From the NCBI GenBank assembly GCA_944324675.1, contig CALUXE010000004.1, positions 1 to 64,000 of the forward strand: a stretch of DNA of 64,000 nt, given 5' to 3'. The notes under the pieces are model-generated. The model was not told where the DNA came from. It saw nothing but the letters and a program-made list of their open reading frames with translations, and made no database searches. The translations under genes were made by a program, and so were the position numbers. The DNA comes from an uncultured Elusimicrobiales bacterium (GTDB lineage Bacteria; Elusimicrobiota; Elusimicrobia; Elusimicrobiales; Elusimicrobiaceae). Shown here piece after piece: positions 2,546 to 58,854 of the stretch (position 1 is the stretch's first letter; every line of letters begins with the position of its first letter).

Positions 2546-2976
2546 TTTTGTCGCTCGCGGAAATCGGCTGCGCGGGCGAATTGGCCGAGATAGCGGCTTC
2601 TTCGGATTTTTGCGCCAAGTGGAGCGGCGCGGATTTTAAAAGCGAGATAGACAATAAATTCGCCAGGATATATACGGCACTTTGCGGAAAGGAAATTGTT
2701 GGTTTTGCTGCGTTTCGTTTATGCGCGGAGGAAGGGGACCTTACCAATTTTGCAGTTAAGGCGCAATACAGAAGGCGCGGAGTGGGCGGTATGCTTCTCT
2801 CAAAAGGCATAGACAGCGCGTCGGCGGAAGGTGTCAAGAGGCTTACTTTGGAAGTAAACGCGGCCAATTGCGCCGCGATAGCTTTATACGAGAAATTTAA
2901 ATTTAAAACGGTCAATGTAAGAAAAAAGTTTTATAATAATTCGCAAGACGCTTTTTTGATGTTGAGGGAGATATGA
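2533..2976 (+). CDS. rimI: GNAT acetyltransferase, ribosomal protein S18-alanine N-acetyltransferase type
   Basis: This 147-aa GNAT protein has the acetyl-CoA loop Q-Y-R-R-R-G-V-G-G (about residues 77-85) and the following LTLEVNAANCAAIALYEKFKF motif typical of RimI. RimI acetylates the N-terminal alanine of ribosomal protein S18 in Escherichia coli. The tsaE-tsaB-rimI order supports the name, although GNAT substrates are hard to fix from sequence alone. The stop codon overlaps the start of the next gene (ATGA). Confidence 0.85.
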   Translation: MREIVLSLAEIGCAGELAEIAASSDFCAKWSGADFKSEIDNKFARIYTALCGKEIVGFAAFRLCAEEGDLTNFAVKAQYRRRGVGGMLLSKGIDSASAEGVKRLTLEVNAANCAAIALYEKFKFKTVNVRKKFYNNSQDAFLMLREI

Positions 2977-4619
2977 GCATAAAGGGGAAGATAATTTTAA
3001 GTTTATTTATTTTTGCGGCTCCGCTGGTATTAAACTGCGCGGATTTAAGCGAGGAAGTAACAATCGGCGAGGCAAGTTCCTCATCGGATAATGAAGGCTC
3101 CGATATCCCAAAGGCTTACGGCGGCGAATTTTATTCCGATTTTATCGAAGCCGCCTATCTGGAGAAAAACGGGCGCCCTCAAGAGGCTTTTGCCATATAT
3201 GAGCGCTTGTATGAAAGCGCTAAAACCGATAAGACGATATTGTATTCGTTGGCGTCCATTTCTTTGGCTCTTAAAGACTCCAAAGCTATGGATAAATACA
3301 TATCGGCCTATTACGCATTGGCGCCGCAAGAGGCGCAGGCTATGTCTTTGCGCGCCGGGCTGTTGTGGAGCCGCGGCGATTTGAAAGGCGCGGCGAAGTT
3401 ATACCGAGAGGCCTTATCAAAAGATCCCGAAGATCCCGAGATAATAACCAAGTATGTGACGCTTATCAGCGCTTTGGACAGCGACGAGGCGGTGGAGTAT
3501 TTGGATTTGCTTGCGAAACAATATCCCGCCATCGGTTCGATGATAGCCCTGAACATCGCCGAGCTATATTTGAAACAAGGCGACAGCGTTTCGGCGGAGG
3601 CCTATCTGAAGAAGTATATATCCTCCAATCCTTATAACATTGAACCTTATACTGTATTGGCCAATATTTACGAAGTGCAGGGTTCGCCCGCCAAAGCGCT
3701 TAAGGTATATCTTGAAATGGAAAAGTACGGATTGGCTTCGGCCGATATATTGGTCAAGATAGGCGCGTACTACGTTTTGGAAGAGAAGAAAGATATAGCT
3801 TTGCAATATTTCAGGCGGGCTAAGGCTTTGGATAATTCTCAGGCGTCGGCGACGGAATTTTTGGTGTTGGACGCTATATCTCGCGGCGATTATGAAGCCG
3901 CGTTTAAACTTTTGACGGAAAGTTCCGCCTATGACTCCGAGCCTTCTTCCCATATAAGGGCGAGCTATTTTCTATCGAAAGCGGGCAAGAGCGCTAAATC
4001 GGCGGAAGTCTTGCGGGAAGCTTACTCCAAATTTCCTCAAGATAACGAAATAGCTTTTTATTATGCGCTTTCCCTTATAGATTTAAAAGACTATAAACAG
4101 GCTGGGGAAATATTGTCCGCTCTTTCGCAAAAGAATCCCGACAACGAAAGCATACTTTTTCACTATTCGTATGTTTTGGAACGGCGGGGCGAATATAAGG
4201 AAATGGAGAAGACTCTAAAGAGGCTTTTGGATATAAACCCCGAAAACGCCGATGTATTGAATTTTTACGGATACTATTTGGTCGACAAAACCCGCCGCGT
4301 GGAAGAGGGCGGGGAATATATCAAGAAGGCTCTCGCGGCCAATCCCGAAGATGCCGCTTTTATAGATTCTATGGCGTGGTATTATTACAAGAAGAAGGAA
4401 TATGAAAAGGCCTATGAGCTGTTGGGCGGCATTCCCCTGGAAGACATGGCGGCGCTTAACGACGCGGAAATATACTTACATTTAGGGCAAACCGCACAAA
4501 GCTTGAAGCTTTGGGAAGACGCCGCCGATTATTATAATAAAGTTTTGGAAATAGAACCGAACAATAAAACGGCAAAAAAGAATTTGAAAAAAGTTACAAA
4601 AAAGTTACAAAAAAAATAA
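2973..4619 (+). CDS. large exported TPR-repeat protein
   Basis: This 548-aa protein has an N-terminal hydrophobic signal (about residues 5-20) ending just before a cysteine at residue 22. That resembles a lipobox but is not canonical (VLNC), so outer-membrane lipidation is only possible. The rest is a long array of tetratricopeptide repeats; the C-terminal ones carry clear NPENADVLNFYGY- and NPEDAAFIDSMAW-type consensus helices. Such proteins usually act as periplasmic or outer-membrane scaffolds. It is the last gene of the tsa operon, coupled to rimI by an ATGA overlap. No more precise role can be given. Confidence 0.8.
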   Translation: MSIKGKIILSLFIFAAPLVLNCADLSEEVTIGEASSSSDNEGSDIPKAYGGEFYSDFIEAAYLEKNGRPQEAFAIYERLYESAKTDKTILYSLASISLALKDSKAMDKYISAYYALAPQEAQAMSLRAGLLWSRGDLKGAAKLYREALSKDPEDPEIITKYVTLISALDSDEAVEYLDLLAKQYPAIGSMIALNIAELYLKQGDSVSAEAYLKKYISSNPYNIEPYTVLANIYEVQGSPAKALKVYLEMEKYGLASADILVKIGAYYVLEEKKDIALQYFRRAKALDNSQASATEFLVLDAISRGDYEAAFKLLTESSAYDSEPSSHIRASYFLSKAGKSAKSAEVLREAYSKFPQDNEIAFYYALSLIDLKDYKQAGEILSALSQKNPDNESILFHYSYVLERRGEYKEMEKTLKRLLDINPENADVLNFYGYYLVDKTRRVEEGGEYIKKALAANPEDAAFIDSMAWYYYKKKEYEKAYELLGGIPLEDMAALNDAEIYLHLGQTAQSLKLWEDAADYYNKVLEIEPNNKTAKKNLKKVTKKLQKK

Positions 4620-4638
4620 AATCTTAAGTACAATATAG

Positions 4639-4726
4639 ATAGGTAAAAGCTGGGCATAAAATCGGAAAGGTTAAAAGCATATTGGAATTATGCCGTTTTT
4701 TTTATTTATTATAGCTTTAAACCTAT
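4639..4726 (+). promoter_or_regulatory. nested inverted-repeat leader upstream of giant protein copy 1
   Basis: Two arms, 4639-4651 (ATAGGTAAAAGCT) and 4713-4726 (AGCTTTAAACCTAT), are complementary over 6+6 bp around a small internal loop. They enclose the terminator hairpin at 4653-4703. A TACAAT -10-like box at 4629-4634 would place a transcript start just before the first arm. The region may therefore be an attenuating 5' leader of the 4764 gene rather than just an operon end. Confidence 0.4.
4653..4703 (+). terminator. intrinsic terminator after the tsa/TPR operon
   Basis: The GGCATAA/TTATGCC stem (4653-4659 with 4688-4694) has a 28-base loop and is followed by G and a run of eight T. 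It closes the upstream operon or attenuates the downstream gene. Confidence 0.6.
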
Positions 4727-4763
4727 AGGCAAGGGAAACCATTATGTCGAGGAACAGAAAGTT

Positions 4764-7700
4764 ATGAGAAAAACTCTAAAGTTTATAACTATTATTGCGG
4801 GTTTATTAATTTTTGGATCGGAGCTTATGGCTCAAACGGCGATGGTAACCCAAAATTTGGTGGTCTATCAGCCGAGTAGTGATAAAGACGATGCCCATTG
4901 CCAAATAACGGATTTGGACGCGGCTTTTAATACCCCTGCCAACAACAGGTCCTATTCTACTGCGACCATACAGCCCGTAAACTCTAGTGACCCGTGGGTC
5001 AATTCCGCTTTGATAGAGTATTCCCAGATAACAATGGGTAATAGAGAGACAGGATATAACTATACCTATCCCAATAGTTGTTTGTCTTTATGCGCGGAAG
5101 TAACCTGCAGCAACCCGGCCAGACTTGTTGAAGGTTCCGATGATTCGGGCACTGGTACCGATACTCGAATATATACGGTAAAGAGCGGGGATTTTCCGAT
5201 ACAGAGCGTATTGTTTGAGATATTCAAATACCAGCAAAACGGCAATCCTTACAATCCCGATTCCACTCCGCCGATAAGGACTATAGCTTTATATCCTACG
5301 GACGGCAACAATATATGCTACGGCGTCGGCGTTCCCAGCAATAGCGTGGAGAACACCTCTGACTGCTGTTCTTCAATAAATTGCGAAGCCCATCCTACAA
5401 ATGCTTGTAATACTACATCTGTAAATTTTTGTAAAGGGGCGAACAATGTTACCGCTACAGCGCAAGCGAATTGTAGGGCCGGCAGAACGGTATTGCATTT
5501 TTGCGCGGCGTGGGACGGCACGTATGAGATAGACGGGGAGTTTGGGCAGAGCAACGGTGATTTTGGATACAGGACGACGATATCAAGCAACTGGCCCGGG
5601 GACGGGGTGAGCACTCCGGAGATAGACATTTCGCACACGATAGTATATCCCGGGGAGAACCAGATTCCGATACAGGTAGACGTAACGAACATACACTCTG
5701 TTAGGAGCACGCCTACGCTGGTAGGGCAGAAGACGGCGGTAACGGCGCAGCCGTACAATATCAATTACAGGATAAGCAAGGACGCTACCGTAACGATAAA
5801 CATATACGATCCATCTGTTGGGATAAATCAGGAAGATCGTCTGTTAGTAAGGAACCTGGTAAACAATTTGCCCAGGGAAGGTGAAGGCTTTCAAGGCGGG
5901 GGAGTAGGCAGCAGCGAAGAGACGATAACGACGATGTCCGAGGCTTGGGACGGCCGGGACAACGAAGGGCGTTTATTGCCGTTTGGCAACTATGTGGTAA
6001 GTTTGAGGGCGACGTCTGTAGACGAGTGGGATCAGCCGGGGAACAACTCTTTCCCGAAATCTGACGTATCTAGAACGGTAATGAGGCAGTTATCATTGGA
6101 TCCATTGAAGATAACGGACATAGAGGCAAAGGGTTTATCGAAGACGAGCACGGCGTACGCGATGCTGAACTACATATTGACGGAAGACGCGACTATCCAT
6201 TTGGAGATATACACGCCGGGCACGACGTTTGAAAGTATCAATATAAATAAGATTTCAGCGAATAATGGGACAGCTTGTACGGACGGTTATTGCAGTTGGA
6301 TGAATGGTGCGTATGCCGCTCCGAAAGTAAAGAACAATAGCGGTTACAAGGTATTTAGTTTGACTGAACAGAAGGCGGGCCGCACGAAGGTAAACAGCAA
6401 ATGGGACGGTATGTGCTGGGGCGACGCGCAGACATGCGCGAATGCGGTGCAGACGGTATTAACGGGGAGTGTCGTTACAGGCGCGGACGCGAGCGGGGTG
6501 ACGGATTACAGCGGAGTGGCATTGCCTGACGGGGACTATGTATACGCGTTATGGGCGGAGATACCCTACAATGACACTATAGATATAAACACGTACAGAT
6601 GGGACGGCGTCAAGACGGCGGTAATAGAGAGCGGGATATTAGGGATAAACAGGGGCTTGCCCGAGCTTACGGTAGGGAGCGTAGGGTATAGCACGATAGG
6701 GTCTAGCCCGGTGGCGCACGGATTGGATCCGTTTATATTTACGTACGCGTTATCAAGGGACGCGTATGTGACGGCGCAGGTATTGACTACGAGCTATGAC
6801 GCGGGGGATAACAGCAGTGTAGGGCCGTATGTAGTGAAGACATTGCTGGACAACGAGATTCAGACATCGGCTAGCGGCGGGAACAAATTATCTTGGGACG
6901 GTATAGACGACAACGGTCGGTACGTGACGCAGGGCAGTTATTTATTTAGGGTAATAGCGCGGGACAGTTTATATCCTACGAAGGTAGTGACGAGCACGGT
7001 AGAGTTTCCGATAGATTTATTTAGGGTAGTGGACGTACAGACGACGAGTTTATTGGAAGACTCGACGTCGCAGGCTACGATCAGCTATGTACTTAGCAAG
7101 AGCATGGACGTAACGCTGAACATATATGACAAGGACGTAGTGATACCGAACGACATAACGGCGGACAATTGGGAGCCGCAGGTATGTCCGGCGGGTACGG
7201 ACATAAGCAGCGGTAAGGTGCAGTGTATATATAGGAAGGGGGATGACGGCCGTATAATAATAGATCCGACGATAGAGCCGATAAAGAGTTTTACTGGCGC
7301 GCGGCAAGGAGAGAGCCGGGTGACGGAGTTTTGGGACGGATACTATGAGGAAGACAGCAGCGGCGGCACTACGCAGGCGATGTATCCGGACGGATTTTAC
7401 CCGTACTATATATATGCTAAGGCGAACGTAGCGGGGAGCAAATATTACAGCACCAAAACTGTCGGCGGGAGCGAAGTATTGGTTCCACAAGATCCTAAAC
7501 AGGACGAGGACAGCGGCTTTTTAAGCTCAATAAACGCTACGGACCAACCAACGGGGTACATAACGATAGCGAGGGGGCCGGTATATTTTACGAAGATCCA
7601 GATAACGCCGAGCAGTCCGAAGCTGGTATACAGTTCGGAGACGATCCAGATACCTACGTACGAGGTATTATTCGGGGTAACAAGGACGGCGAGCGTCCAG

Positions 7701-8867
7701 GTGCAGATAGTATCGTTGAGCGACGGGGCGTGCACGGGCGCGAACGGGAGCGGTCGTGGTACGGTGTGCCGAGTATTGACGAAGACGACGATGGATAATT
7801 TGAGCACGATATATGACGGGAATATAGAGAACAAGCTGTACTGGGACGGTAAAGACGAGCAAGGCAACTACGTAAAGAGCGACGCTTATCAAGTGCGGTT
7901 TATAGCGGAGCCGTATCCGCAGGCTGAAGGGATAGGGCAGACGATAGAGTCCAGGATAATAAACGTAGACAACTTTCAGATATTTGACAGGTACACTACG
8001 GACGTGACGCGGGATAACGGGGGGATAGGGACGTTTGCGTATCAGGTATCGGTTCCGATGAAGGTGGCGATCCAGATATTTAAGCCGGGAACGATGACAA
8101 GCGGAGCGGCGGACGGGACATTGATAGATCCGGCGGATCCGACGGGTCCGGCGATAAACGAGAACAGTATAGACAAGGTATTGGTGAAGGCGATAATAGG
8201 GGTAAGCCCGCACTTAATACCGATAGAGAGGGTATGGGACGGAACGGATTACAGGGGGCAGCAGGTGCCGGACGGCATATATCCGTTCAGGTATGTGAGC
8301 GTATTGGACTCGTACGATATGGACAGCGTAAACGGGTCGATAAGGATAGATCGGGATCAGAGCGATGTAACGACGAAGGTAGCGGACTGGGACAAGTACG
8401 TGAATTTGGAGAACATCATGGTAGTGAACGGGGACAGCTGGTACGCGGACTTGGATTGGAAGAGCGATAAGGTGACGATGTTCTATCCGAACCCGTTGAG
8501 GCAGAGTTACGGACAATTTGAAATAACGAAGGTACCGGCGCCTGGCACGGTAAGCATAAAGATATACAATATAGCGGGCGATTTGGTAAGGGACGGCGGA
8601 TATGAGTGTATGAACGCGCGGGGAGTGACGAGCAGTTTGGAGCAGATAAACAACAGCGGCGGGATAGATCCGGACTGGACGACGAACACTGGCGGAGTGG
8701 GAGAAGTGGAAGGAGGCGGGAACTTTGCGTTAAGGTGCAAATGGGACCGGACGAACAATCACGGGAGGAAGGTAGCGAGAGGATTATACTATGCGATAAT
8801 GGAGCTTAGTCCGACGAGGGGCAATGCGGTGAAGTCGCAGAAGGTAATCAAGATCCTTATACCATAA
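4764..8867 (+). CDS. giant secreted FlgD-Ig-repeat surface protein, copy 1
   Basis: This 1367-aa protein has a signal peptide (cleavage expected after the MAQ region at about residue 24). The N-terminal segment of about 220 residues is cysteine-rich. Seven FlgD-like Ig modules follow, each marked by W-D-G/R...G...G-x-Y. The C-terminal module has a YPNP motif, an IYNIAGDLV strand and a WDRTNNHGRKVARGLYY end, resembling type A sorting domains of type 9 secretion cargo. The protein is identical to the 9068 copy after the signal peptide. It is probably displayed on the surface as an adhesin-like fibre; the function is unknown. It has its own leader upstream and no PorV-like gene directly behind it. 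Confidence 0.85.
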   Translation: MRKTLKFITIIAGLLIFGSELMAQTAMVTQNLVVYQPSSDKDDAHCQITDLDAAFNTPANNRSYSTATIQPVNSSDPWVNSALIEYSQITMGNRETGYNYTYPNSCLSLCAEVTCSNPARLVEGSDDSGTGTDTRIYTVKSGDFPIQSVLFEIFKYQQNGNPYNPDSTPPIRTIALYPTDGNNICYGVGVPSNSVENTSDCCSSINCEAHPTNACNTTSVNFCKGANNVTATAQANCRAGRTVLHFCAAWDGTYEIDGEFGQSNGDFGYRTTISSNWPGDGVSTPEIDISHTIVYPGENQIPIQVDVTNIHSVRSTPTLVGQKTAVTAQPYNINYRISKDATVTINIYDPSVGINQEDRLLVRNLVNNLPREGEGFQGGGVGSSEETITTMSEAWDGRDNEGRLLPFGNYVVSLRATSVDEWDQPGNNSFPKSDVSRTVMRQLSLDPLKITDIEAKGLSKTSTAYAMLNYILTEDATIHLEIYTPGTTFESININKISANNGTACTDGYCSWMNGAYAAPKVKNNSGYKVFSLTEQKAGRTKVNSKWDGMCWGDAQTCANAVQTVLTGSVVTGADASGVTDYSGVALPDGDYVYALWAEIPYNDTIDINTYRWDGVKTAVIESGILGINRGLPELTVGSVGYSTIGSSPVAHGLDPFIFTYALSRDAYVTAQVLTTSYDAGDNSSVGPYVVKTLLDNEIQTSASGGNKLSWDGIDDNGRYVTQGSYLFRVIARDSLYPTKVVTSTVEFPIDLFRVVDVQTTSLLEDSTSQATISYVLSKSMDVTLNIYDKDVVIPNDITADNWEPQVCPAGTDISSGKVQCIYRKGDDGRIIIDPTIEPIKSFTGARQGESRVTEFWDGYYEEDSSGGTTQAMYPDGFYPYYIYAKANVAGSKYYSTKTVGGSEVLVPQDPKQDEDSGFLSSINATDQPTGYITIARGPVYFTKIQITPSSPKLVYSSETIQIPTYEVLFGVTRTASVQVQIVSLSDGACTGANGSGRGTVCRVLTKTTMDNLSTIYDGNIENKLYWDGKDEQGNYVKSDAYQVRFIAEPYPQAEGIGQTIESRIINVDNFQIFDRYTTDVTRDNGGIGTFAYQVSVPMKVAIQIFKPGTMTSGAADGTLIDPADPTGPAINENSIDKVLVKAIIGVSPHLIPIERVWDGTDYRGQQVPDGIYPFRYVSVLDSYDMDSVNGSIRIDRDQSDVTTKVADWDKYVNLENIMVVNGDSWYADLDWKSDKVTMFYPNPLRQSYGQFEITKVPAPGTVSIKIYNIAGDLVRDGGYECMNARGVTSSLEQINNSGGIDPDWTTNTGGVGEVEGGGNFALRCKWDRTNNHGRKVARGLYYAIMELSPTRGNAVKSQKVIKILIP

Positions 8868-8877
8868 TATCGGGACG
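4836..8877 (+). repeat. 4.0-kb direct repeat, unit 1
   Basis: It matches 9179-13220 with a constant offset of 4343 bases and no indel. The only differences I found are at 8843, 8846, 8849 and 8852, all third codon positions. I compared many lines but not every base. The identical protein, and identical shadow reading frames on both strands, support near-perfect identity. Both flanks differ between copies. Confidence 0.95.
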
Positions 8878-8984
8878 CTCCCGCGGAAGCGTTTTAGTAA
8901 AAAGATTTGTTAAGGGCGAAAGAGTATAAATCTATTGACAATGTTTGTTAAAAATTGCGAAAATGGTAAATAACGGATATACTG

Positions 8985-9023
8985 TTTAAACATATACATG
9001 TTTAAATGGTATGCTGTTATAAT
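8985..9023 (+). promoter_or_regulatory. promoter with palindromic operator for giant protein copy 2
   Basis: A perfect 9-bp inverted repeat (TTTAAACAT at 8985-8993, ATGTTTAAA at 8998-9006) lies where the -35 element would be. It is followed by an extended -10, TGTTATAAT (9015-9023). A regulator bound at the palindrome would sit at the -35 position. The start codon is 44 bases downstream. The promoter could serve copy 2, the PorV-like gene and possibly the Tad locus. Confidence 0.55.
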
Positions 9024-9067
9024 ATTTTGTATAGGCGGCTTTATATATTTAATTTGGTAATCATATT

Positions 9068-12000
9068 ATGAATAACAGAAACGATAAAAATGTTTTAAGA
9101 GAAATATCCGGCATATTTGCAAAAGCGGCAATGTTCGCTTTTGCATTGTTTTATGGGGCGCTTTTCGCAAACGCTCAGACGGCGATGGTAACCCAAAATT
9201 TGGTGGTCTATCAGCCGAGTAGTGATAAAGACGATGCCCATTGCCAAATAACGGATTTGGACGCGGCTTTTAATACCCCTGCCAACAACAGGTCCTATTC
9301 TACTGCGACCATACAGCCCGTAAACTCTAGTGACCCGTGGGTCAATTCCGCTTTGATAGAGTATTCCCAGATAACAATGGGTAATAGAGAGACAGGATAT
9401 AACTATACCTATCCCAATAGTTGTTTGTCTTTATGCGCGGAAGTAACCTGCAGCAACCCGGCCAGACTTGTTGAAGGTTCCGATGATTCGGGCACTGGTA
9501 CCGATACTCGAATATATACGGTAAAGAGCGGGGATTTTCCGATACAGAGCGTATTGTTTGAGATATTCAAATACCAGCAAAACGGCAATCCTTACAATCC
9601 CGATTCCACTCCGCCGATAAGGACTATAGCTTTATATCCTACGGACGGCAACAATATATGCTACGGCGTCGGCGTTCCCAGCAATAGCGTGGAGAACACC
9701 TCTGACTGCTGTTCTTCAATAAATTGCGAAGCCCATCCTACAAATGCTTGTAATACTACATCTGTAAATTTTTGTAAAGGGGCGAACAATGTTACCGCTA
9801 CAGCGCAAGCGAATTGTAGGGCCGGCAGAACGGTATTGCATTTTTGCGCGGCGTGGGACGGCACGTATGAGATAGACGGGGAGTTTGGGCAGAGCAACGG
9901 TGATTTTGGATACAGGACGACGATATCAAGCAACTGGCCCGGGGACGGGGTGAGCACTCCGGAGATAGACATTTCGCACACGATAGTATATCCCGGGGAG
10001 AACCAGATTCCGATACAGGTAGACGTAACGAACATACACTCTGTTAGGAGCACGCCTACGCTGGTAGGGCAGAAGACGGCGGTAACGGCGCAGCCGTACA
10101 ATATCAATTACAGGATAAGCAAGGACGCTACCGTAACGATAAACATATACGATCCATCTGTTGGGATAAATCAGGAAGATCGTCTGTTAGTAAGGAACCT
10201 GGTAAACAATTTGCCCAGGGAAGGTGAAGGCTTTCAAGGCGGGGGAGTAGGCAGCAGCGAAGAGACGATAACGACGATGTCCGAGGCTTGGGACGGCCGG
10301 GACAACGAAGGGCGTTTATTGCCGTTTGGCAACTATGTGGTAAGTTTGAGGGCGACGTCTGTAGACGAGTGGGATCAGCCGGGGAACAACTCTTTCCCGA
10401 AATCTGACGTATCTAGAACGGTAATGAGGCAGTTATCATTGGATCCATTGAAGATAACGGACATAGAGGCAAAGGGTTTATCGAAGACGAGCACGGCGTA
10501 CGCGATGCTGAACTACATATTGACGGAAGACGCGACTATCCATTTGGAGATATACACGCCGGGCACGACGTTTGAAAGTATCAATATAAATAAGATTTCA
10601 GCGAATAATGGGACAGCTTGTACGGACGGTTATTGCAGTTGGATGAATGGTGCGTATGCCGCTCCGAAAGTAAAGAACAATAGCGGTTACAAGGTATTTA
10701 GTTTGACTGAACAGAAGGCGGGCCGCACGAAGGTAAACAGCAAATGGGACGGTATGTGCTGGGGCGACGCGCAGACATGCGCGAATGCGGTGCAGACGGT
10801 ATTAACGGGGAGTGTCGTTACAGGCGCGGACGCGAGCGGGGTGACGGATTACAGCGGAGTGGCATTGCCTGACGGGGACTATGTATACGCGTTATGGGCG
10901 GAGATACCCTACAATGACACTATAGATATAAACACGTACAGATGGGACGGCGTCAAGACGGCGGTAATAGAGAGCGGGATATTAGGGATAAACAGGGGCT
11001 TGCCCGAGCTTACGGTAGGGAGCGTAGGGTATAGCACGATAGGGTCTAGCCCGGTGGCGCACGGATTGGATCCGTTTATATTTACGTACGCGTTATCAAG
11101 GGACGCGTATGTGACGGCGCAGGTATTGACTACGAGCTATGACGCGGGGGATAACAGCAGTGTAGGGCCGTATGTAGTGAAGACATTGCTGGACAACGAG
11201 ATTCAGACATCGGCTAGCGGCGGGAACAAATTATCTTGGGACGGTATAGACGACAACGGTCGGTACGTGACGCAGGGCAGTTATTTATTTAGGGTAATAG
11301 CGCGGGACAGTTTATATCCTACGAAGGTAGTGACGAGCACGGTAGAGTTTCCGATAGATTTATTTAGGGTAGTGGACGTACAGACGACGAGTTTATTGGA
11401 AGACTCGACGTCGCAGGCTACGATCAGCTATGTACTTAGCAAGAGCATGGACGTAACGCTGAACATATATGACAAGGACGTAGTGATACCGAACGACATA
11501 ACGGCGGACAATTGGGAGCCGCAGGTATGTCCGGCGGGTACGGACATAAGCAGCGGTAAGGTGCAGTGTATATATAGGAAGGGGGATGACGGCCGTATAA
11601 TAATAGATCCGACGATAGAGCCGATAAAGAGTTTTACTGGCGCGCGGCAAGGAGAGAGCCGGGTGACGGAGTTTTGGGACGGATACTATGAGGAAGACAG
11701 CAGCGGCGGCACTACGCAGGCGATGTATCCGGACGGATTTTACCCGTACTATATATATGCTAAGGCGAACGTAGCGGGGAGCAAATATTACAGCACCAAA
11801 ACTGTCGGCGGGAGCGAAGTATTGGTTCCACAAGATCCTAAACAGGACGAGGACAGCGGCTTTTTAAGCTCAATAAACGCTACGGACCAACCAACGGGGT
11901 ACATAACGATAGCGAGGGGGCCGGTATATTTTACGAAGATCCAGATAACGCCGAGCAGTCCGAAGCTGGTATACAGTTCGGAGACGATCCAGATACCTAC

Positions 12001-13210
12001 GTACGAGGTATTATTCGGGGTAACAAGGACGGCGAGCGTCCAGGTGCAGATAGTATCGTTGAGCGACGGGGCGTGCACGGGCGCGAACGGGAGCGGTCGT
12101 GGTACGGTGTGCCGAGTATTGACGAAGACGACGATGGATAATTTGAGCACGATATATGACGGGAATATAGAGAACAAGCTGTACTGGGACGGTAAAGACG
12201 AGCAAGGCAACTACGTAAAGAGCGACGCTTATCAAGTGCGGTTTATAGCGGAGCCGTATCCGCAGGCTGAAGGGATAGGGCAGACGATAGAGTCCAGGAT
12301 AATAAACGTAGACAACTTTCAGATATTTGACAGGTACACTACGGACGTGACGCGGGATAACGGGGGGATAGGGACGTTTGCGTATCAGGTATCGGTTCCG
12401 ATGAAGGTGGCGATCCAGATATTTAAGCCGGGAACGATGACAAGCGGAGCGGCGGACGGGACATTGATAGATCCGGCGGATCCGACGGGTCCGGCGATAA
12501 ACGAGAACAGTATAGACAAGGTATTGGTGAAGGCGATAATAGGGGTAAGCCCGCACTTAATACCGATAGAGAGGGTATGGGACGGAACGGATTACAGGGG
12601 GCAGCAGGTGCCGGACGGCATATATCCGTTCAGGTATGTGAGCGTATTGGACTCGTACGATATGGACAGCGTAAACGGGTCGATAAGGATAGATCGGGAT
12701 CAGAGCGATGTAACGACGAAGGTAGCGGACTGGGACAAGTACGTGAATTTGGAGAACATCATGGTAGTGAACGGGGACAGCTGGTACGCGGACTTGGATT
12801 GGAAGAGCGATAAGGTGACGATGTTCTATCCGAACCCGTTGAGGCAGAGTTACGGACAATTTGAAATAACGAAGGTACCGGCGCCTGGCACGGTAAGCAT
12901 AAAGATATACAATATAGCGGGCGATTTGGTAAGGGACGGCGGATATGAGTGTATGAACGCGCGGGGAGTGACGAGCAGTTTGGAGCAGATAAACAACAGC
13001 GGCGGGATAGATCCGGACTGGACGACGAACACTGGCGGAGTGGGAGAAGTGGAAGGAGGCGGGAACTTTGCGTTAAGGTGCAAATGGGACCGGACGAACA
13101 ATCACGGGAGGAAGGTAGCGAGAGGATTATACTATGCGATAATGGAGCTTAGTCCGACGAGGGGCAATGCGGTGAAGTCGCAGAAAGTGATAAAAATCCT
13201 TATACCATAA
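9068..13210 (+). CDS. giant secreted FlgD-Ig-repeat surface protein, copy 2
   Basis: This 1380-aa protein is identical to the 4764 product from the QTAMVTQNL residues onward. It carries a different, longer N-terminus: a polar stretch of about 20 residues, then a hydrophobic signal ending FANAQ. The domain layout is the same, with a cysteine-rich head, seven FlgD-like Ig modules and a YPNP sorting-like tail. The stop is followed after 18 bases by the PorV-like gene with no terminator between, so the two are co-transcribed. That makes this copy the one physically tied to a candidate outer-membrane partner. The different promoter and signal peptide suggest different expression or targeting. Confidence 0.85.
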   Translation: MNNRNDKNVLREISGIFAKAAMFAFALFYGALFANAQTAMVTQNLVVYQPSSDKDDAHCQITDLDAAFNTPANNRSYSTATIQPVNSSDPWVNSALIEYSQITMGNRETGYNYTYPNSCLSLCAEVTCSNPARLVEGSDDSGTGTDTRIYTVKSGDFPIQSVLFEIFKYQQNGNPYNPDSTPPIRTIALYPTDGNNICYGVGVPSNSVENTSDCCSSINCEAHPTNACNTTSVNFCKGANNVTATAQANCRAGRTVLHFCAAWDGTYEIDGEFGQSNGDFGYRTTISSNWPGDGVSTPEIDISHTIVYPGENQIPIQVDVTNIHSVRSTPTLVGQKTAVTAQPYNINYRISKDATVTINIYDPSVGINQEDRLLVRNLVNNLPREGEGFQGGGVGSSEETITTMSEAWDGRDNEGRLLPFGNYVVSLRATSVDEWDQPGNNSFPKSDVSRTVMRQLSLDPLKITDIEAKGLSKTSTAYAMLNYILTEDATIHLEIYTPGTTFESININKISANNGTACTDGYCSWMNGAYAAPKVKNNSGYKVFSLTEQKAGRTKVNSKWDGMCWGDAQTCANAVQTVLTGSVVTGADASGVTDYSGVALPDGDYVYALWAEIPYNDTIDINTYRWDGVKTAVIESGILGINRGLPELTVGSVGYSTIGSSPVAHGLDPFIFTYALSRDAYVTAQVLTTSYDAGDNSSVGPYVVKTLLDNEIQTSASGGNKLSWDGIDDNGRYVTQGSYLFRVIARDSLYPTKVVTSTVEFPIDLFRVVDVQTTSLLEDSTSQATISYVLSKSMDVTLNIYDKDVVIPNDITADNWEPQVCPAGTDISSGKVQCIYRKGDDGRIIIDPTIEPIKSFTGARQGESRVTEFWDGYYEEDSSGGTTQAMYPDGFYPYYIYAKANVAGSKYYSTKTVGGSEVLVPQDPKQDEDSGFLSSINATDQPTGYITIARGPVYFTKIQITPSSPKLVYSSETIQIPTYEVLFGVTRTASVQVQIVSLSDGACTGANGSGRGTVCRVLTKTTMDNLSTIYDGNIENKLYWDGKDEQGNYVKSDAYQVRFIAEPYPQAEGIGQTIESRIINVDNFQIFDRYTTDVTRDNGGIGTFAYQVSVPMKVAIQIFKPGTMTSGAADGTLIDPADPTGPAINENSIDKVLVKAIIGVSPHLIPIERVWDGTDYRGQQVPDGIYPFRYVSVLDSYDMDSVNGSIRIDRDQSDVTTKVADWDKYVNLENIMVVNGDSWYADLDWKSDKVTMFYPNPLRQSYGQFEITKVPAPGTVSIKIYNIAGDLVRDGGYECMNARGVTSSLEQINNSGGIDPDWTTNTGGVGEVEGGGNFALRCKWDRTNNHGRKVARGLYYAIMELSPTRGNAVKSQKVIKILIP

Positions 13211-13220
13211 TATCGGGACG
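9179..13220 (+). repeat. 4.0-kb direct repeat, unit 2
   Basis: This is the partner of 4836-8877. Identity starts exactly at the codons after the signal peptide and ends ten bases past the stop codon, apart from four clustered synonymous differences at 13186-13195. Recombination between the units would delete or invertibly exchange signal peptide and promoter contexts. Confidence 0.95.
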
Positions 13221-13228
13221 ACAGATTT

Positions 13229-14215
13229 ATGAAAAACAATAAATATATTAAGCTTTTAACGATAGTGACAATATTTTCCCTGCTTGGCGTCTGGGCGGAA
13301 GCCGCGGGCCCTTATGAAAGAGCAGGCACCAGCGCTAGTGCTTTTTTGAAACTCGGCACCGGCGCGCCTGAAGCCCAAGCTTTGGGCAATGCCTATACGG
13401 CGCTTTCAAGCGGGGCGCAGGCATTGTTTTGGAACCCTGCGGGTATAGCCACCAGCACCACTAGAGAAATACAGGTTTCCCATATGCAGTGGTTTGAGGG
13501 CGTTGGCGACAGCGCCGTAGGTTATATCCAACCGATAGGCAAAACTGTTCTGGGTGTAAGTTTAAGGTATATGCGTTTATCCGGAGACGACCTTAACCCC
13601 AGAGATCCGGGCGGCATACCTTACGATATTACGGGCGACGCGATACGGGACTTTGTGGCGGCGGTTTCTTTGGGAAGGACCTTCTTCGGCGTATTGGACA
13701 TAGGCGGTACTGCCAAGTATATCAATGAAGACAACGTCGGCGTAAAACATATCAATCCCGCATTTGATATCGGCGGTAAACTGAGAATATCCAACAACAG
13801 ATTTGTGATAGGCGTTATGGGACAGAACCTCGGAGATCCGGACGAAGTGCCCTCGGCTATCAGAGGCGGCGCCGCGATAAACACCAAATATTTTACGATA
13901 TCGGGCGAAATCGTGGATTATGTTGACGATAAATTGAGATACGGCGTCGGCCTTGCGATACATATTCCCGAGGAGCTGGTGCAAGTTGCCTCTTTTGACA
14001 TAAGGGTAGGTTACTATAACCGTGAGAACACGGGCTGGGCTGAAGAGGGCGACATAGCCGAAAAGATCGGCTTGGAAACGACTTCAAAGGTAACTTTGGG
14101 TTTCGGTTTTTACAGCAGCGAAGTCCTCGGATATGGATTGGGTCTTGACTACGCGATGATGCCTTCGGGCGCATTGGGTACGGCCCATCAATTGGCGGTT
14201 AGATTGCAGTTCTAA
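13229..14215 (+). CDS. PorV/PorQ-family outer-membrane barrel protein
   Basis: This 328-aa protein has a signal peptide (about residues 1-25). The next segment, with AFLKLGTGAPEAQALGNAYT and then ALFWNPAGIA, is the hallmark of the PorV/PorQ (FadL-like, UPF0164) family. The rest alternates short amphipathic strands and ends with an aromatic residue (VRLQF), as outer-membrane barrels do. In Bacteroidota PorV shuttles type 9 cargo by binding C-terminal sorting domains. Its place 18 bases behind a protein with such a domain suggests an analogous partnership here; this is inference. The Tad locus starts 30 bases downstream. Confidence 0.82.
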   Translation: MKNNKYIKLLTIVTIFSLLGVWAEAAGPYERAGTSASAFLKLGTGAPEAQALGNAYTALSSGAQALFWNPAGIATSTTREIQVSHMQWFEGVGDSAVGYIQPIGKTVLGVSLRYMRLSGDDLNPRDPGGIPYDITGDAIRDFVAAVSLGRTFFGVLDIGGTAKYINEDNVGVKHINPAFDIGGKLRISNNRFVIGVMGQNLGDPDEVPSAIRGGAAINTKYFTISGEIVDYVDDKLRYGVGLAIHIPEELVQVASFDIRVGYYNRENTGWAEEGDIAEKIGLETTSKVTLGFGFYSSEVLGYGLGLDYAMMPSGALGTAHQLAVRLQF

Positions 14216-35669: not shown

Positions 35670-37202
35670 ATGAAAAACAAAAACATAGTCAGAGACAGAA
35701 ACAAGAAACCTCCTTTCTATAAAAATAAGAAGGGGGTATTGGCGGTGATTTTGTTGCTTTTGCTGTTCTTTCTTACGGTAATAACTATGCCTATGTCGGA
35801 AATACCTTTGCTCGGCCGCATGGGGGTAATGTTTGGGCTTACCGATGAATCCATGCGGGCTTTGACCTTGTCCGATTTCGCGGCGTATACATTCGGGATA
35901 GAGGGCGGCGGCCGTTTGGCCTCAGTACGAAACGGACAATATTCCGTATATGAGAGCAGTGGGGGCCTTTCCCCGTTCGCCCTGCAGAGTTCCAACCGTC
36001 TTTTGGACGCGCAAGAGGCTTACAGAAAGGAATTTGAGAAGATGGGCAGATATAGCGCCATAGCGGGATCGGCCTCGGGATTGAATTTGGAAGATCCGGA
36101 AGGCATCGTCTATCAGATGGGAATGAACGGGGTAAGCCCGTATATCGATGGGGAGACTGGGGCCGCGGCGGCGGACGCATACGGACAGCCTTTTGTTAAA
36201 CCTTTTGACGAGATGGCTTTGGAACAAGCCTACGCGGGCAGTTATGGCGGCAAGCGGGACGGCAAGGGGAATATTATCTTATCGGGCAGCGATAAGACGA
36301 AGATTTTGAAGCCGTCGGACTTGGGGGAAATAAAATCCGCCAGAAGCGACGAGAACAGCATGTATTTTCAATCTTTGGATAAACAAAGCAAGAAATTGCA
36401 TGGCGGCCGTTTGGGAGCGTTTGGCGGCATAAACGCAATGACCAGCAGAATAAGAACAAGCGTTTCTTCCGGGCGGCAAATGGGAGCCTTTGGCTTTTCC
36501 GGCCGACAGATGGGGCGCGTATATTATTTGAGCGCCACCGCTAAGAGCCAAAAATACAATGATGTCGCGAAGAATGTCGTAGAAGCCGCGTGGGACGGCG
36601 GAGAGATAGAGGAAGAGGATTTGTTGGCCGTAGGAGAGGAAACCGAAAAAACGGTAGACTCTTTGGAACCGCCTTCTACGATAATAGGCAAAGCGACGAG
36701 AGCCATGGATGCGTGTGCGGCGGCGCGCGTAGCTTACAATCAGGCTTTAAACGAAACGGGCGCGGCTTATAGGGAGCTGGAAGCCCTGATGCTGCAAGCG
36801 GGTATAGACTCGGGGTCCAATACGGGAGTGCCGGGATCTTGCAGCGCGAATTGGCCTAAAGGCTCAGCTCTGTCGAAAGCCAAACGCCAAGAATGGAATT
36901 CGTATATAGAGGCGATGAAAACGACTTGTAATGAGCTTCGCAATATCGGCGGGGATTATGCGGGGCAATGCGGGCTTAACTATGAAACCACGGTGTCTTG
37001 CGGCAAACTTGACGAAGCTAAGGCGAAAGGAAAGACTTGGGGCGGGAATGTCTGGACTTTGTTGACCGAGTTTAAGAAGTGCAAGAATAATTCCATAGAC
37101 ACCAACGGCAAGAGTTTGAAGTTGGATAGGGTCAATAGCATACTCGAAGACGTCCGCAAAGGCGCGGGCTTAGACGGGACGGTAACGGAAGATTTCTTTT
37201 AA
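35670..37202 (+). CDS. unknown membrane-anchored protein with Y-x-D-V-A-K element
   Basis: This 510-aa protein has a transmembrane helix (about 22-40) and a long soluble region with repeated GR[LQ]GAFG-type phrases (246-275). SQKYNDVAKNVVEAAW (293-308) matches the element of proteins A and B. The C-terminal helical domain carries five cysteines (about 345-470). No known domain was recognised. It belongs to the same co-directional group, and a fresh promoter follows it at 37257. Confidence 0.68.
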   Translation: MKNKNIVRDRNKKPPFYKNKKGVLAVILLLLLFFLTVITMPMSEIPLLGRMGVMFGLTDESMRALTLSDFAAYTFGIEGGGRLASVRNGQYSVYESSGGLSPFALQSSNRLLDAQEAYRKEFEKMGRYSAIAGSASGLNLEDPEGIVYQMGMNGVSPYIDGETGAAAADAYGQPFVKPFDEMALEQAYAGSYGGKRDGKGNIILSGSDKTKILKPSDLGEIKSARSDENSMYFQSLDKQSKKLHGGRLGAFGGINAMTSRIRTSVSSGRQMGAFGFSGRQMGRVYYLSATAKSQKYNDVAKNVVEAAWDGGEIEEEDLLAVGEETEKTVDSLEPPSTIIGKATRAMDACAAARVAYNQALNETGAAYRELEALMLQAGIDSGSNTGVPGSCSANWPKGSALSKAKRQEWNSYIEAMKTTCNELRNIGGDYAGQCGLNYETTVSCGKLDEAKAKGKTWGGNVWTLLTEFKKCKNNSIDTNGKSLKLDRVNSILEDVRKGAGLDGTVTEDFF

Positions 37203-37353: not shown

Positions 37354-40300
37354 ATGCCAAATAAGGATAGCTTTACGTTTAGCGATAAGTTAAAGAAGAG
37401 TAAATCTCTTCCATTATCCAAACGTATTCCCTCCCGTGTAGGAGGAGACGGCAAAGCCAAGCGGACTTTAATTCAAAGAGCCCAAAGGGATTTGCCATTT
37501 ATAATAGTGGCCGTAGCGGCTTTATTGCTGCTGCCATTATTGAGCCGCCACGGCGGCACTGACGGGGCCGGTTTTGAAGGCTCGGGTTACGACGATTTTG
37601 TAGGGCAATCCCTGTATGACTATCCGTCTTCCGGCGACGGTGAAATCGTCCCCAGCACGGGCTATAGAGATCCTATGGACTACATTATAACCAATCGCAG
37701 CGGAATGGATACTCCCAGCTTAAGCGATAGCTATGATTCCGAGGATCCCTCCTTATACATATCGCGTGCGCAGGATTCTTATGCGGACTCCAAACCTCAA
37801 AGAGAGATATATAAGGATGTGGCAAAGCCCGGCATTCGAAACGCGGTACAGCGCAAAGCTACGGCGATAGGGGCGTTTAGGAACCGCGCGATGAGTTTCG
37901 GCGGATCCACTTCCGGCTTGAGCCGCAACCTGGCGATAGGCGGCGCTCCCACGACTGCGGGCGCGGCCGCGGCCAGAGTCGGCGTAAGGCCTGTAGCCTT
38001 GCAGCCTCTGACTTCAGGCGGCAAAGGCAGGGTGCTTACCGGCGAGGGTTTATATGCCGAGGCTGCCCGTTCTTTAGGCGCTTTGAACCAAGGTTCGGCC
38101 AAACAGGCTTTGTTTGAAGCTCAGCTTCGCGATGTCGACGGCACCCCTTTAGGCGCGCCCGGCGACTCGAGAAGGGCCGCCGCCAGAATAGGCTCTCAGG
38201 GCAGGGTCCCCGACCACAAGTTTGGATACACCAATGAACGTCCTTGGTGGTGGGATATGATGAATGAGCGTTCCCAGAAGATGTGGGAGCTTTGGAATTA
38301 CAACTGGCAGAAAGCTTTATCCGATTCGCTGATAAAAGTATCCACCAACTTGGCGATGTGTCTTTTGACGGGTTCTCAAGACGGTTCCGTAGAGAAATTT
38401 TTGGGCGTCAAAGGCGGGTCTAAGGATATATGCTGTCTTGTCGACGGCAAAGAAATTTGCGCCGGCGACATTGGCGATTATACGTCTTCCACCAGCGGGT
38501 CGGGCGACAGTAAAGAAACGACTAATAATTCCTTCTCGTCCATACAAGCTTTTTGCGAGTCGCACGAATCCAAAGTATATGTTTCCGAATCCGGGGCTAA
38601 GAACTTCTTGCAGGCCAGGCTCGAGTGTATGGGCTTGAAAGCGGGAAAAATGGCTTGGGCTTCAGGCACTAACTATGCGGCTTCTTGCGCGAACGTAAAT
38701 AAAACCCCCATGGTGTATAAAGCAAGCGCGAGGCGTAAAGCCGACGGCAAAGTAAGAAGCGGAAAACAGGAAAAGGTTGTGGTATACGTTAAAGCCAAAC
38801 CTAGAGACAAAAGCGTCGATACCGGCACTAAAGACAACGAGTTCGTTATAGCCTTGGAAAAAACTAATGAATTCACTTTAAGCCAATCACAGCTTGAGGC
38901 TATTAACAAAAACTGCGAGATTACAAGAGTAGGTTCTTTCGCGGCCAAGAACTCAAAAAGAAAAATCGGCAAGAAAGTCGGCCAGTATAACGACCTTAAC
39001 GATGACTCGGATTCCAAGAAGGTTAAGGAGGACGACGACGCGATAGAAAAGAGAATCGCCGAACTTGAAAGCGAATTGAGAAGAACAAATAACGAGAAAG
39101 AGCGAACGGAATTGAACCGCGAGTTGACTCTATTAAAAAAAGGGAGATATACACCTGAAGCCGAAAGCGAAAACGCCGAAGAAGAAGAGAATAACGAAAC
39201 GGAAGCAATGATAAACTCTTATGTAAGAGGCCAGGTGGCCGCGCAGTATAACTATTGTACGGGCGGCAATACCAAACCGGCGAAATTCATTGATGAAGAC
39301 GACATCATGAAAGACCTCAGGGTAAAGGCTGAAATAAATGATGTCTGCCCGATATGGTATTCCGAAGGTACGATAAATGATCGCACCGTTAACGGCCTAA
39401 CCTGCAATACTCAGCAGAGCGGGGTTGACTTTGTTGAAATAGACAAATTGTCCAGGTCTACTTTCTCGGTTACCGTTAATAATCCTAAAGACTACATCTA
39501 CGCGATATTCTTGGAAGAGGTTCAGAGCGCGCAAGACCAGAACGGCAAGTCGGGCGTTATCGTCAAGCATTATGTAAAAGATACGGCGGAAGAAACGTCC
39601 TCCGGCAATGATATGGTCCATTCCAATGTAACGATGGGCGAAGATGGCAGAATAACTTCGGCGACCTATACCGTACCTTATTACAGAGCGGGCAAAGCTC
39701 CGGAGAGTACTCAGAGCAATACGGTAGGCTCCGTACCCGGCAACGGTAAAGTGTTCTGGTTGATGACCAATAAGGAAACGCCGATCGTAAAGGCAGGGCA
39801 CGTATTTGAGGGGAAAGTCCTTTCCGAGATAAATGCGGAAGATCTTATCGGCCCTACGGCCGGCCATAAAGAGGGAGAATGCTTCTACTCGTGGGGTTGC
39901 AACGGATCGGAATGCCCGGATAAGGCTCCTATTGCGACATTATGCAAAGATGGCGAGAAGATCTATAGAGCCTCAAAGTATAACGATTATTACTTTAAGC
40001 ATAATACCACGCCAATGACTGAGCAAGAAATTAATGATTATGCTAAGAGTCATGCGGAATATGATATAGGGGCTTTTAAGAATAAATTACCGTCGTGTAA
40101 TTCCATATGTAAACATAAAGAAGGCGTATATGGCATATTGGGAGGAACTGACGAAGAAAAGGCCCTACAACTAGAACTAGATTCTTCCATAGTGGCGCAG
40201 GAAATCTTGAACAATTGCCCTTCCTGCAATCCGCAGGAAGACAATTCAACCCCCGAAGAAGCAGCCCTTGCTCGTAACGACGAGAACAACTATGAGCATG

Positions 40301-41211
40301 ACAGGTATTTTAATAGTAAGTTAGATTTGGGCAACTGCGAATTTACTATTAACTCCCAATTTGCCGTGAATCGTTTCATGGTATTTAAGAATGATTCCAA
40401 GGTAAAGGCCGAAATCGCCGGCAAATTTAGCAATCATGAGATGATAAAGTGTTTGACTAGAATAGGCGGCGTTACCCTAAATATTGAGGGATCTGCCAGT
40501 GCAAGCGGCGATGATCCGAGCAAAAACCAGGCCCTCTCTGAAGCTAGGGCAACAAGAGTAGCGGAAGAGATAATTGTCTTTATGAAGCAGCATATAAATT
40601 TAAAAAATCTTAGAATCTGCTATAAATATAATGATGGTTATGGCACAAAAGAGGGCTGGACTACCGACGAGACGGCTGGCGGAGAGAATGCAAGCGGACA
40701 CGATCTGGAAACCGAATCCGAAAAGGCTTATCTTGAAGGATTTAAGAAGGCACATCCCGAAGGTAATTGTGTTCAAACGAATGATGAGATTTACTTTGCG
40801 GACCAGGAGATGCAGAGGCAGGAATTGGTAGGGAAAGTGAGGGAGGTGCAATTAACCACCGCAGTCAAGAAGTTTATAGACTCTAAAAATAATTCGGGAA
40901 CGGAGTATTATGAATGCGTGAGAAGATCAACTCCTCAGGATATAAGAGCATGCATTGACAGAGCAACCGAAAAAGATGCGAAGAATATTCCCGACACTTG
41001 GACAGAAGAAGATAAGGCAAGTTATGAAGAATATAATCAGGCTTTAAACACCCTGAAATATTTTATAAATGCTACTTATCTTCCCGCTCTGGAAAGGATA
41101 TCTTATCTTGAGATATACATTCAAGGGAAAGGGGTTGATTCCCGTTCTAAGGGGGCGGAAGAAGAATATCAATCCATAAAGGGTTGGGTTACTGTACCCT
41201 CTAAACAATAA
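37354..41211 (+). CDS. giant membrane-anchored protein with possible OmpA-like C-terminal domain
   Basis: This 1285-aa protein has a basic N-terminus, a transmembrane helix (about 48-63) and a disordered region. YKDVAK (153-158) is followed by an AIGAF phrase related to its neighbours. Then comes a long cysteine-containing region with a coiled charged segment (about 560-620). Near residue 1045, VTLNIEGSASASGDDPSKNQALSEARATRVAE resembles the core of OmpA-like peptidoglycan-binding domains (G-x-A-S...N-x-x-L-S-x-x-R-A). If so, this could fix the assembly to the cell wall. The family's closing NRRVE motif is not clear. Terminator at 41235-41277. Confidence 0.65.
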   Translation: MPNKDSFTFSDKLKKSKSLPLSKRIPSRVGGDGKAKRTLIQRAQRDLPFIIVAVAALLLLPLLSRHGGTDGAGFEGSGYDDFVGQSLYDYPSSGDGEIVPSTGYRDPMDYIITNRSGMDTPSLSDSYDSEDPSLYISRAQDSYADSKPQREIYKDVAKPGIRNAVQRKATAIGAFRNRAMSFGGSTSGLSRNLAIGGAPTTAGAAAARVGVRPVALQPLTSGGKGRVLTGEGLYAEAARSLGALNQGSAKQALFEAQLRDVDGTPLGAPGDSRRAAARIGSQGRVPDHKFGYTNERPWWWDMMNERSQKMWELWNYNWQKALSDSLIKVSTNLAMCLLTGSQDGSVEKFLGVKGGSKDICCLVDGKEICAGDIGDYTSSTSGSGDSKETTNNSFSSIQAFCESHESKVYVSESGAKNFLQARLECMGLKAGKMAWASGTNYAASCANVNKTPMVYKASARRKADGKVRSGKQEKVVVYVKAKPRDKSVDTGTKDNEFVIALEKTNEFTLSQSQLEAINKNCEITRVGSFAAKNSKRKIGKKVGQYNDLNDDSDSKKVKEDDDAIEKRIAELESELRRTNNEKERTELNRELTLLKKGRYTPEAESENAEEEENNETEAMINSYVRGQVAAQYNYCTGGNTKPAKFIDEDDIMKDLRVKAEINDVCPIWYSEGTINDRTVNGLTCNTQQSGVDFVEIDKLSRSTFSVTVNNPKDYIYAIFLEEVQSAQDQNGKSGVIVKHYVKDTAEETSSGNDMVHSNVTMGEDGRITSATYTVPYYRAGKAPESTQSNTVGSVPGNGKVFWLMTNKETPIVKAGHVFEGKVLSEINAEDLIGPTAGHKEGECFYSWGCNGSECPDKAPIATLCKDGEKIYRASKYNDYYFKHNTTPMTEQEINDYAKSHAEYDIGAFKNKLPSCNSICKHKEGVYGILGGTDEEKALQLELDSSIVAQEILNNCPSCNPQEDNSTPEEAALARNDENNYEHDRYFNSKLDLGNCEFTINSQFAVNRFMVFKNDSKVKAEIAGKFSNHEMIKCLTRIGGVTLNIEGSASASGDDPSKNQALSEARATRVAEEIIVFMKQHINLKNLRICYKYNDGYGTKEGWTTDETAGGENASGHDLETESEKAYLEGFKKAHPEGNCVQTNDEIYFADQEMQRQELVGKVREVQLTTAVKKFIDSKNNSGTEYYECVRRSTPQDIRACIDRATEKDAKNIPDTWTEEDKASYEEYNQALNTLKYFINATYLPALERISYLEIYIQGKGVDSRSKGAEEEYQSIKGWVTVPSKQ

Positions 41212-58749: not shown

Positions 58750-58784
58750 AAACCCTCCGTTTGTAAATGTAGATTACGAAAGAT

Positions 58785-58813
58785 TATACAAATATTTAAT
58801 CTTATGCTACAAT
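58785..58813 (+). promoter_or_regulatory. promoter of the secreted protease operon
   Basis: TATACA (58785-58790), a 17-base spacer and extended -10 TGCTACAAT (58805-58813). The leader of about 35 bases carries GGAGGAG five bases before the ATG at 58855. Confidence 0.65.
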
Positions 58814-58854
58814 GGAAATATATTTTTGTATTCATCCTTGTAGGAGGAGTGTTG

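What the first reader, a model, noticed from the sequence alone, without database searches (positions are those of the whole stretch)
4836..13220. Near-perfect 4-kb tandem duplication of a giant surface protein with swapped signal peptides and promoters
Two proteins of about 1345 identical residues sit head-to-tail, with identical DNA but entirely different signal sequences, leaders and 3' contexts. Identity starts at the mature N-terminus. This points to very recent duplication or continuing gene conversion that spares the targeting and control ends. It resembles silent/expressed cassette arrangements used for surface variation, although here both copies have full expression signals.
Basis: partly seen in the sequence, partly recalled or inferred. 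Interest (0 to 1): 0.8.

Follow-up and report, generated by a model that had tools for sequence, protein, structure and literature searches.

The report
Duplicated, homogenised giant surface-protein gene
A gut Elusimicrobiota bacterium carries two back-to-back copies of a giant secreted-protein gene whose mature parts are the same but whose export signals differ; relatives carry similar copies that appear to keep overwriting one another, a known kind of gene evolution seen here in a little-studied phylum.

Summary
Window 4836-8842 and 9179-13185 are 4007 identical nt, followed by four synonymous differences and 25 further shared nt. Signal peptides and flanks differ.

The identical block is probably one collapsed graph path walked twice. 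Tandem linkage is credible; perfect identity and exactly two copies are not proven.

The gene is the family-wide Elusimicrobiaceae gene upstream of a PorV-like gene and a Tad locus. It encodes a variable N-terminal head with a Cys-rich insert, then a conserved FlgD-Ig body.

Extra copies recur in relatives. Two contigs of one MAG carry different heads at different loci but end in the same 119-mer. One MAG has three copies at three loci. In another, two copies form a mosaic of 100% blocks and 78-96% patches. Head and body trees conflict for this genome.

Best reading: a small paralogue family whose bodies, and here also heads, are homogenised by gene conversion, as in Helicobacter bab/hop genes. 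Silent-cassette variation is not supported. New member of a known kind.

The parts
2973..4619 (+). TPR-repeat protein, ancestral upstream neighbour of the giant gene in the genus
   Evidence: Pfam TPR; found upstream of the giant gene in genus genomes
4764..4829 (+). signal peptide A (MRKTLKFITIIAGLLIFGSELMA|QTA), unique to copy A; G008's TPR-side gene has a 72.7% nt similar one
   Evidence: sequence; comparison with G001 and G008; cleavage site inferred by eye
4764..8867 (+). copy A, giant secreted FlgD-Ig protein, 1367 aa
   Evidence: ORF; Pfam FlgD_ig 60.6 bits
4830..5504 (+). copy A variable head (mature 1-225), with the Cys-rich hypervariable insert at about mature 166-219
   Evidence: identity profiles, insert lengths and Cys counts across the genus
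4836..8842 (+). 4007-nt block identical to 9179-13185
8843..8852 (+). patch with four synonymous third-position differences from copy B
8868..8877 (+). 10 nt after copy A's stop, shared with copy B and matching the ancestral gene-porV intergenic
   Evidence: same 10 nt in G001, first six in G017
8878..9067 (+). unique AT-rich spacer; sigma-70-like sites at 8935-8964 and 8955-8983 (not above chance as a set)
   Evidence: GC; scan; no full-length relative in 17 genus genomes
9068..9172 (+). signal peptide B (MNNRNDKNVLREISGIFAKAAMFAFALFYGALFANA|QTA), unique to copy B
   Evidence: sequence; cleavage site inferred by eye
9068..13210 (+). copy B, giant secreted FlgD-Ig protein, 1380 aa
   Evidence: ORF; Pfam FlgD_ig 60.5 bits
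9179..13185 (+). second copy of the 4007-nt block
13229..14215 (+). PorV/PorQ-family outer-membrane protein (UPF0164), 18 nt downstream of copy B; ancestral downstream neighbour
   Evidence: Pfam PF03687; NCBIfam PorV_fam 77.8 bits, cut-off 90; synteny

Best explanation
The ancestral locus is TPR - giant gene - porV. In the window's lineage the giant gene became a direct tandem repeat: copy A keeps the ancestral 5' side (TPR, signal peptide A), copy B keeps the ancestral 3' side (porV), and a new spacer with signal peptide B lies between them. The protein is Sec-exported and probably outer-membrane-associated and adhesin-like: a variable head with a Cys-rich insert on a body with FlgD-Ig-type domains, working with the PorV-like protein encoded next door (inferred). 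Across Elusimicrobiaceae it forms a small paralogue family, tandem or dispersed, whose bodies are kept alike by homologous gene conversion while heads usually diverge. In the window's genome the latest conversion also covered the head and ended at the signal-peptide border, where homology ends, so both copies deliver the same mature protein under different leaders. Shown: two copies in the assembly, paralogues with shared bodies in relatives, mosaic identity, head/body tree conflict. Inferred: gene conversion as the mechanism, surface location, adhesin-like role.
For: Exact block with sharp borders. Synteny across the family. L127/L129: two contigs of one MAG at different loci, heads 74% and inserts 40% identical, ending in exactly the same 119 nt, the k in their contig names. 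L138/L139: bodies a mosaic of 100% nt blocks (aa 462-582, 700-760, 940-1000) and patches of 78-96%; heads 33-64% aa. UBA1202: three copies at three loci, 94-97% nt identical just past the head where the copies overlap. Tree conflict: body joins G000 with G001 (100/98); head joins G001+G008+G017 (100/98) without G000. Contig breaks in the gene: 9 of 15 genus genomes vs 3.4 expected (P=5e-4); 22 of 57 family loci vs 9.5 expected (P=3.5e-6). porV-side contigs of G011 and G014 start exactly 141 and 55 nt before the end of the stop codon, lengths equal to assembler k values.
Against: Several relatives show one uninterrupted copy (G017, G010, G007, G002, G006, G013), and the one-contig genome G018 has a single head. 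Excess breaks and mosaics in MAGs can also come from mixed strains. In G011 the gene contig shows no incoming fork, so a full second copy is not required there. Copy identity in G000 may be partly imposed by the assembler.
Confidence: 0.62

Rival explanations
1. A very recent simple tandem duplication in this lineage, with a rearranged spacer, and no continuing conversion: the copies have just not had time to diverge.
For: Identity is (nearly) total over 4007 nt including synonymous sites. Other genus genomes show single contiguous copies. Copy A carries 10 nt of the ancestral gene-porV intergenic after its stop, as a duplication breakpoint would leave.
Against: Four differences clustered in 10 nt next to 4007 identical nt are not what uniform drift gives. 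The head tree puts G000 outside G001+G008+G017 although the body puts it with G001. Paralogues with shared bodies occur in other species. A simple duplication does not explain the unrelated signal peptide and spacer.
Confidence: 0.22
2. Assembly product: a loop in a k=77 short-read graph, or a mixture of strains, makes two copies look identical or creates the duplication.
For: G000 contigs overlap by exactly 77 nt in seven pairs, so a 4-kb exact repeat cannot have been spanned by reads. Bulge removal could have merged differences (general knowledge of de Bruijn assemblers).
Against: The spacer is unique, gap-free and joins repeat end to repeat start, so both junctions had to be covered by reads; a spacer leaving and re-entering the same repeat implies at least two tandem units or a circle. 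Outer flanks match conserved synteny on both sides. Relatives assembled independently show paralogues.
Confidence: 0.12
3. A dedicated antigenic-variation system: paralogues act as donors of new heads to an expressed copy.
For: The head insert is hypervariable (52-276 aa, 31-42% identity in most cross-species pairs, Cys-rich). The head of G000 seems replaced relative to its body.
Against: In the window both heads are the same, so there is no variant to donate. Copies found have their own signal peptides; no silent cassettes, no recombinase, no repeat-flanked head cassette found. No within-species data.
Confidence: 0.1

Closest known systems
Helicobacter pylori babA/babB and homA/homB
   Same: Duplicated surface-protein genes in which one part diverges and the 3' segment is more alike within a strain than between strains, read as concerted evolution by gene conversion (PMC3960876). 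Here too heads diverge and bodies match within a genome.
   Different: Different phylum and unrelated protein (giant FlgD-Ig protein linked to a PorV-like gene). In the window the copies are tandem and the head is identical as well. No strain-level data.
Helicobacter pylori hopJ/hopK
   Same: Whole genes similar within a strain but different between strains, ascribed to concerted evolution (PMC3120642); closest to the fully homogenised pair in the window.
   Different: hopJ and hopK carry separate locus numbers (HP0477, HP0923) and so are not adjacent; here the two are tandem with different signal peptides.
Type IX secretion substrates with a C-terminal domain and PorV
   Same: C-terminal part weakly matches the PorZ C-terminal region, and a PorV/PorQ-like protein is encoded next door.
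   Different: PorV_fam match is below its cut-off; no SprA_N over its cut-off and no C25 peptidase found in the genus, with controls that did not ring.

Membership tests
Concerted evolution of duplicated surface-protein genes (H. pylori bab/hop type) | at least two genomic copies in one genome | tested here: met
   two in G000; two each in the L127/L129 and L138/L139 genomes, three in UBA1202; assembly-dependent
Concerted evolution of duplicated surface-protein genes (H. pylori bab/hop type) | copies more alike within a genome than between species | tested here: met
   G000 A/B 100% over 4007 nt vs 83-89% body nt to G001; L138/L139 blocks of 100%
Concerted evolution of duplicated surface-protein genes (H. 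pylori bab/hop type) | mosaic tracts with sharp borders | tested here: met
   (L138/L139); head/body tree conflict for G000; strain mixing not excluded
Concerted evolution of duplicated surface-protein genes (H. pylori bab/hop type) | copies exchange sequence within one strain lineage (several isolates) | not testable with these tools
   one genome per species held
Silent/expressed cassette antigenic variation | silent, truncated or promoterless donor copies | tested here: not met
   the only two copies in G000 both have a start codon and a signal peptide
Silent/expressed cassette antigenic variation | different variants among copies of one genome | tested here: not met
   identical in the window; differing heads do occur in L127/L129 and UBA1202
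Type IX secretion substrate | recognised type IX C-terminal domain | tested here: inconclusive
   FlgD_ig and a weak PorZ C-terminal match far below cut-off
Type IX secretion substrate | genome encodes the SprA translocon and PorU sortase | tested here: inconclusive
   SprA_N over cut-off in 0 of 18, Peptidase_C25 in 0 of 18 genomes; control genomes silent too

The most novel reading that the evidence does not exclude
A family-wide head-swapping and body-homogenising system in gut Elusimicrobiota: paralogues of one giant PorV-linked protein trade Cys-rich hypervariable heads between loci by conversion, with locus-specific signal peptides and leaders left in place, so that a cell can deliver one mature protein in two expression contexts or several heads on one conserved body.
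Probability: 0.25. Interest if true: 0.62.

Novelty: new member of a known kind. Interest (0 to 1): 0.42.

Why it matters
Gut Elusimicrobiota are almost unstudied at the cell surface, and no paper on this protein was found in the library searched. The gene is conserved across the family next to a PorV-like gene and a Tad locus, and its N-terminal head is among the fastest-changing parts of the locus, which points to an interaction with host, phage or neighbours. Because the copies are alike, the gene is broken or lost in many short-read MAGs, so its diversity is systematically under-reported. Long reads would make it a test case for gene conversion in commensals.

Tried and rejected
Looked for a third copy in the genome: only two. 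Looked for the spacer in 17 genus genomes: only the 35-nt gene tail and short chance-level pieces. Promoter and terminator scans around both copies gave no hits clearly above shuffles; the one terminator call lies inside the copy B signal-peptide coding region and is not credited. Signal for type IX secretion: SprA_N and Peptidase_C25 not found, but controls silent, so not used as proof of absence. Structure of mature 1-480: mean pLDDT 67, insert disordered, best PDB matches at TM about 0.19, so no fold assigned. Plexin/PSI likeness of the Cys-rich insert: one sub-threshold match in one of four inserts, rejected. Tip overlap of the window's own contig start: none. Papers on the protein: none found. 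One row of the 8-row C-terminal profile A2 (G004) was completed by guess in its first two residues, which the contig does not hold; the profile served only as a search query.

Full report
WHAT IS THERE. Two ORFs, 4764-8867 and 9068-13210, encode proteins of 1367 and 1380 aa that share 1345 identical mature residues. The DNA is identical over 4007 nt (4836-8842 and 9179-13185). After it come four third-position differences in ten bases (8843, 8846, 8849, 8852), all synonymous, then 25 identical bases that include the stop and ten bases beyond. The 5' border lies at the apparent signal-peptidase site (A-QTA): the two signal peptides and upstream regions are unrelated. The 190-nt spacer is AT-rich.

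THE ASSEMBLY. The genome (1.40 Mb, 17 contigs, 99.7% complete) is a short-read-type assembly: seven pairs of contig ends overlap by exactly 77 nt, the signature of a de Bruijn graph with k=77. Short reads cannot span a 4-kb exact repeat, so the two identical blocks are most likely one graph path traversed twice. What the assembly does support is the loop: repeat end joined to a unique gap-free spacer, joined to repeat start, between two flanks that match the conserved order. That implies at least two tandem units. It does not fix the copy number, and single-base differences between copies may have been merged. This is inference from how such assemblers work, not a tool result.

THE GENE. It is a family-wide gene of Elusimicrobiaceae. 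In the genus the order is tsaE-tsaB-rimI-TPR-giant gene-porV-TadE-CpaB, and outside the genus giant gene-porV-TadE-CpaB holds in nearly every contig long enough to show it. The body carries FlgD-Ig matches. The neighbour matches the PorV/PorQ family below the curated cut-off (77.8 vs 90 bits). SprA_N and C25-peptidase searches found no type IX translocon or sortase in the genus, but the control genomes did not ring either. The first 225 mature residues form a head: a scaffold of about 165 residues with many invariant positions and a Cys-rich insert of 52-276 aa that is mostly 31-42% identical between species while the body is 76-83% identical in the same full-length pairs. AlphaFold gave a beta-rich model of low confidence (mean pLDDT 67) with the insert disordered, and no useful PDB match.

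RELATIVES SHOW THE SAME KIND OF PARALOGY. In JAISDW (L127/L129, the same as G015) two contigs with different upstream genes carry different heads and end in exactly the same 119 nt; the contig names show k119. Two genes thus feed one body node. In CAMECJ (L138/L139) the two copies can be compared over about 1,050 aa before they merge in the same last 55 nt: heads 33-64% identical, bodies a mosaic of blocks with 100% nt identity and patches of 78-96%. L139 has only about 360 nt of upstream sequence, so for this pair a second strain in the bin cannot be excluded. UBA1202 has three copies with different neighbours, 94-97% nt identical just past the head. The gene is also where assemblies break: 9 of 15 genus genomes against 3.4 expected from contig numbers (P=5e-4), and 22 of 57 family loci against 9.5 expected from contig lengths (P=3.5e-6). 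In G011 and G014 the porV-side contig begins exactly 141 and 55 nt before the end of the stop codon, i.e. the graph forks at the stop; G004, G008 and G001 are within a few bases of such a distance. By contrast six genus genomes show one contiguous copy, and the one-contig genome G018, of the size of E. minutum Pei191 (identity inferred from size only), has a single head.

RECOMBINATION IN THIS LINEAGE. The body tree joins G000 with G001 (100/98), with G017 outside. The head tree joins G001, G008 and G017 (100/98) and leaves G000 outside. At the nucleotide level the G000 head is 68-70% identical to G001 and G008, while those two are 83% identical to each other; G000's signal peptide A region, in contrast, is still 73-76% similar to G008's. 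The simplest reading is that the ancestral head behind signal peptide A was replaced, with the border at the signal-peptide junction, and that the same head now sits in both copies. The two versions of the four synonymous sites recur in the porV-side copies of G001 (copy A-like) and G008 (copy B-like), as expected if variants move between copies.

MECHANISM. Most likely: duplication of the giant gene at the TPR-porV locus, with a new leader and signal peptide of unknown origin between the copies, and later homogenisation of the mature coding part by homologous gene conversion, which stops where the signal peptides cease to match. A simple very recent duplication is the main rival for the window taken alone; the relatives and the tree conflict favour conversion. 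Assembly artefact explains part of the perfect identity but not the spacer loop or the relatives. A dedicated antigenic-variation system is possible but unsupported: the window's heads are the same and no silent donors were found. A 4.3-kb direct repeat should also lose a copy by recombination, so copy number may vary among cells; this is a prediction.

COMPARISON. The closest known cases are Helicobacter pylori babA/babB and homA/homB, where the 3' segment evolves in concert while the 5' part diverges (PMC3960876), and hopJ/hopK, similar within and different between strains (PMC3120642). The present case works like these; within-strain exchange, the last defining feature, could not be tested. 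I file it as a new member of that kind of evolution, in a new phylum and an unrelated protein family.

VERDICT. Observation confirmed, interpretation partly supported, interest moderate. The lasting points are the conserved, fast-changing head of a PorV-linked giant protein and the fact that its paralogues are hidden by short-read assembly.

Noticed in passing
window 58738-62253: 1171-aa protein with thermolysin-type propeptide and peptidase M4 domains and a C-terminal FlgD_ig match just below its cut-off: a second exported protein that may use the same kind of C-terminal domain.
   Followed up: no
L213:1-80, L212:1-90 and several other contig tips of the genome: Many contig tips share a dispersed element (GGTTGACTTG, a run of about 12 T, GATAAAGT ...) just upstream of type IV pilin-like genes (MLKKKGFTLIE...); it seems to break the assembly like a repeated leader.
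   Followed up: partly
window 2973-4763 against G001 (L060): The TPR gene is 98.5% identical to G001, but the following intergenic region falls to about 62% and porV is 89%: a recombination border seems to lie just after the TPR gene.
   Followed up: partly
L068 (G015 contig C126): In G015 the TPR gene is followed by unrelated genes instead of the giant gene, whose two copies lie on other contigs, so the locus has been rearranged there.
   Followed up: partly
window 37354-41211 and 35670-37202: A 1285-aa and a 510-aa ORF with no Pfam or NCBIfam match.
   Followed up: no
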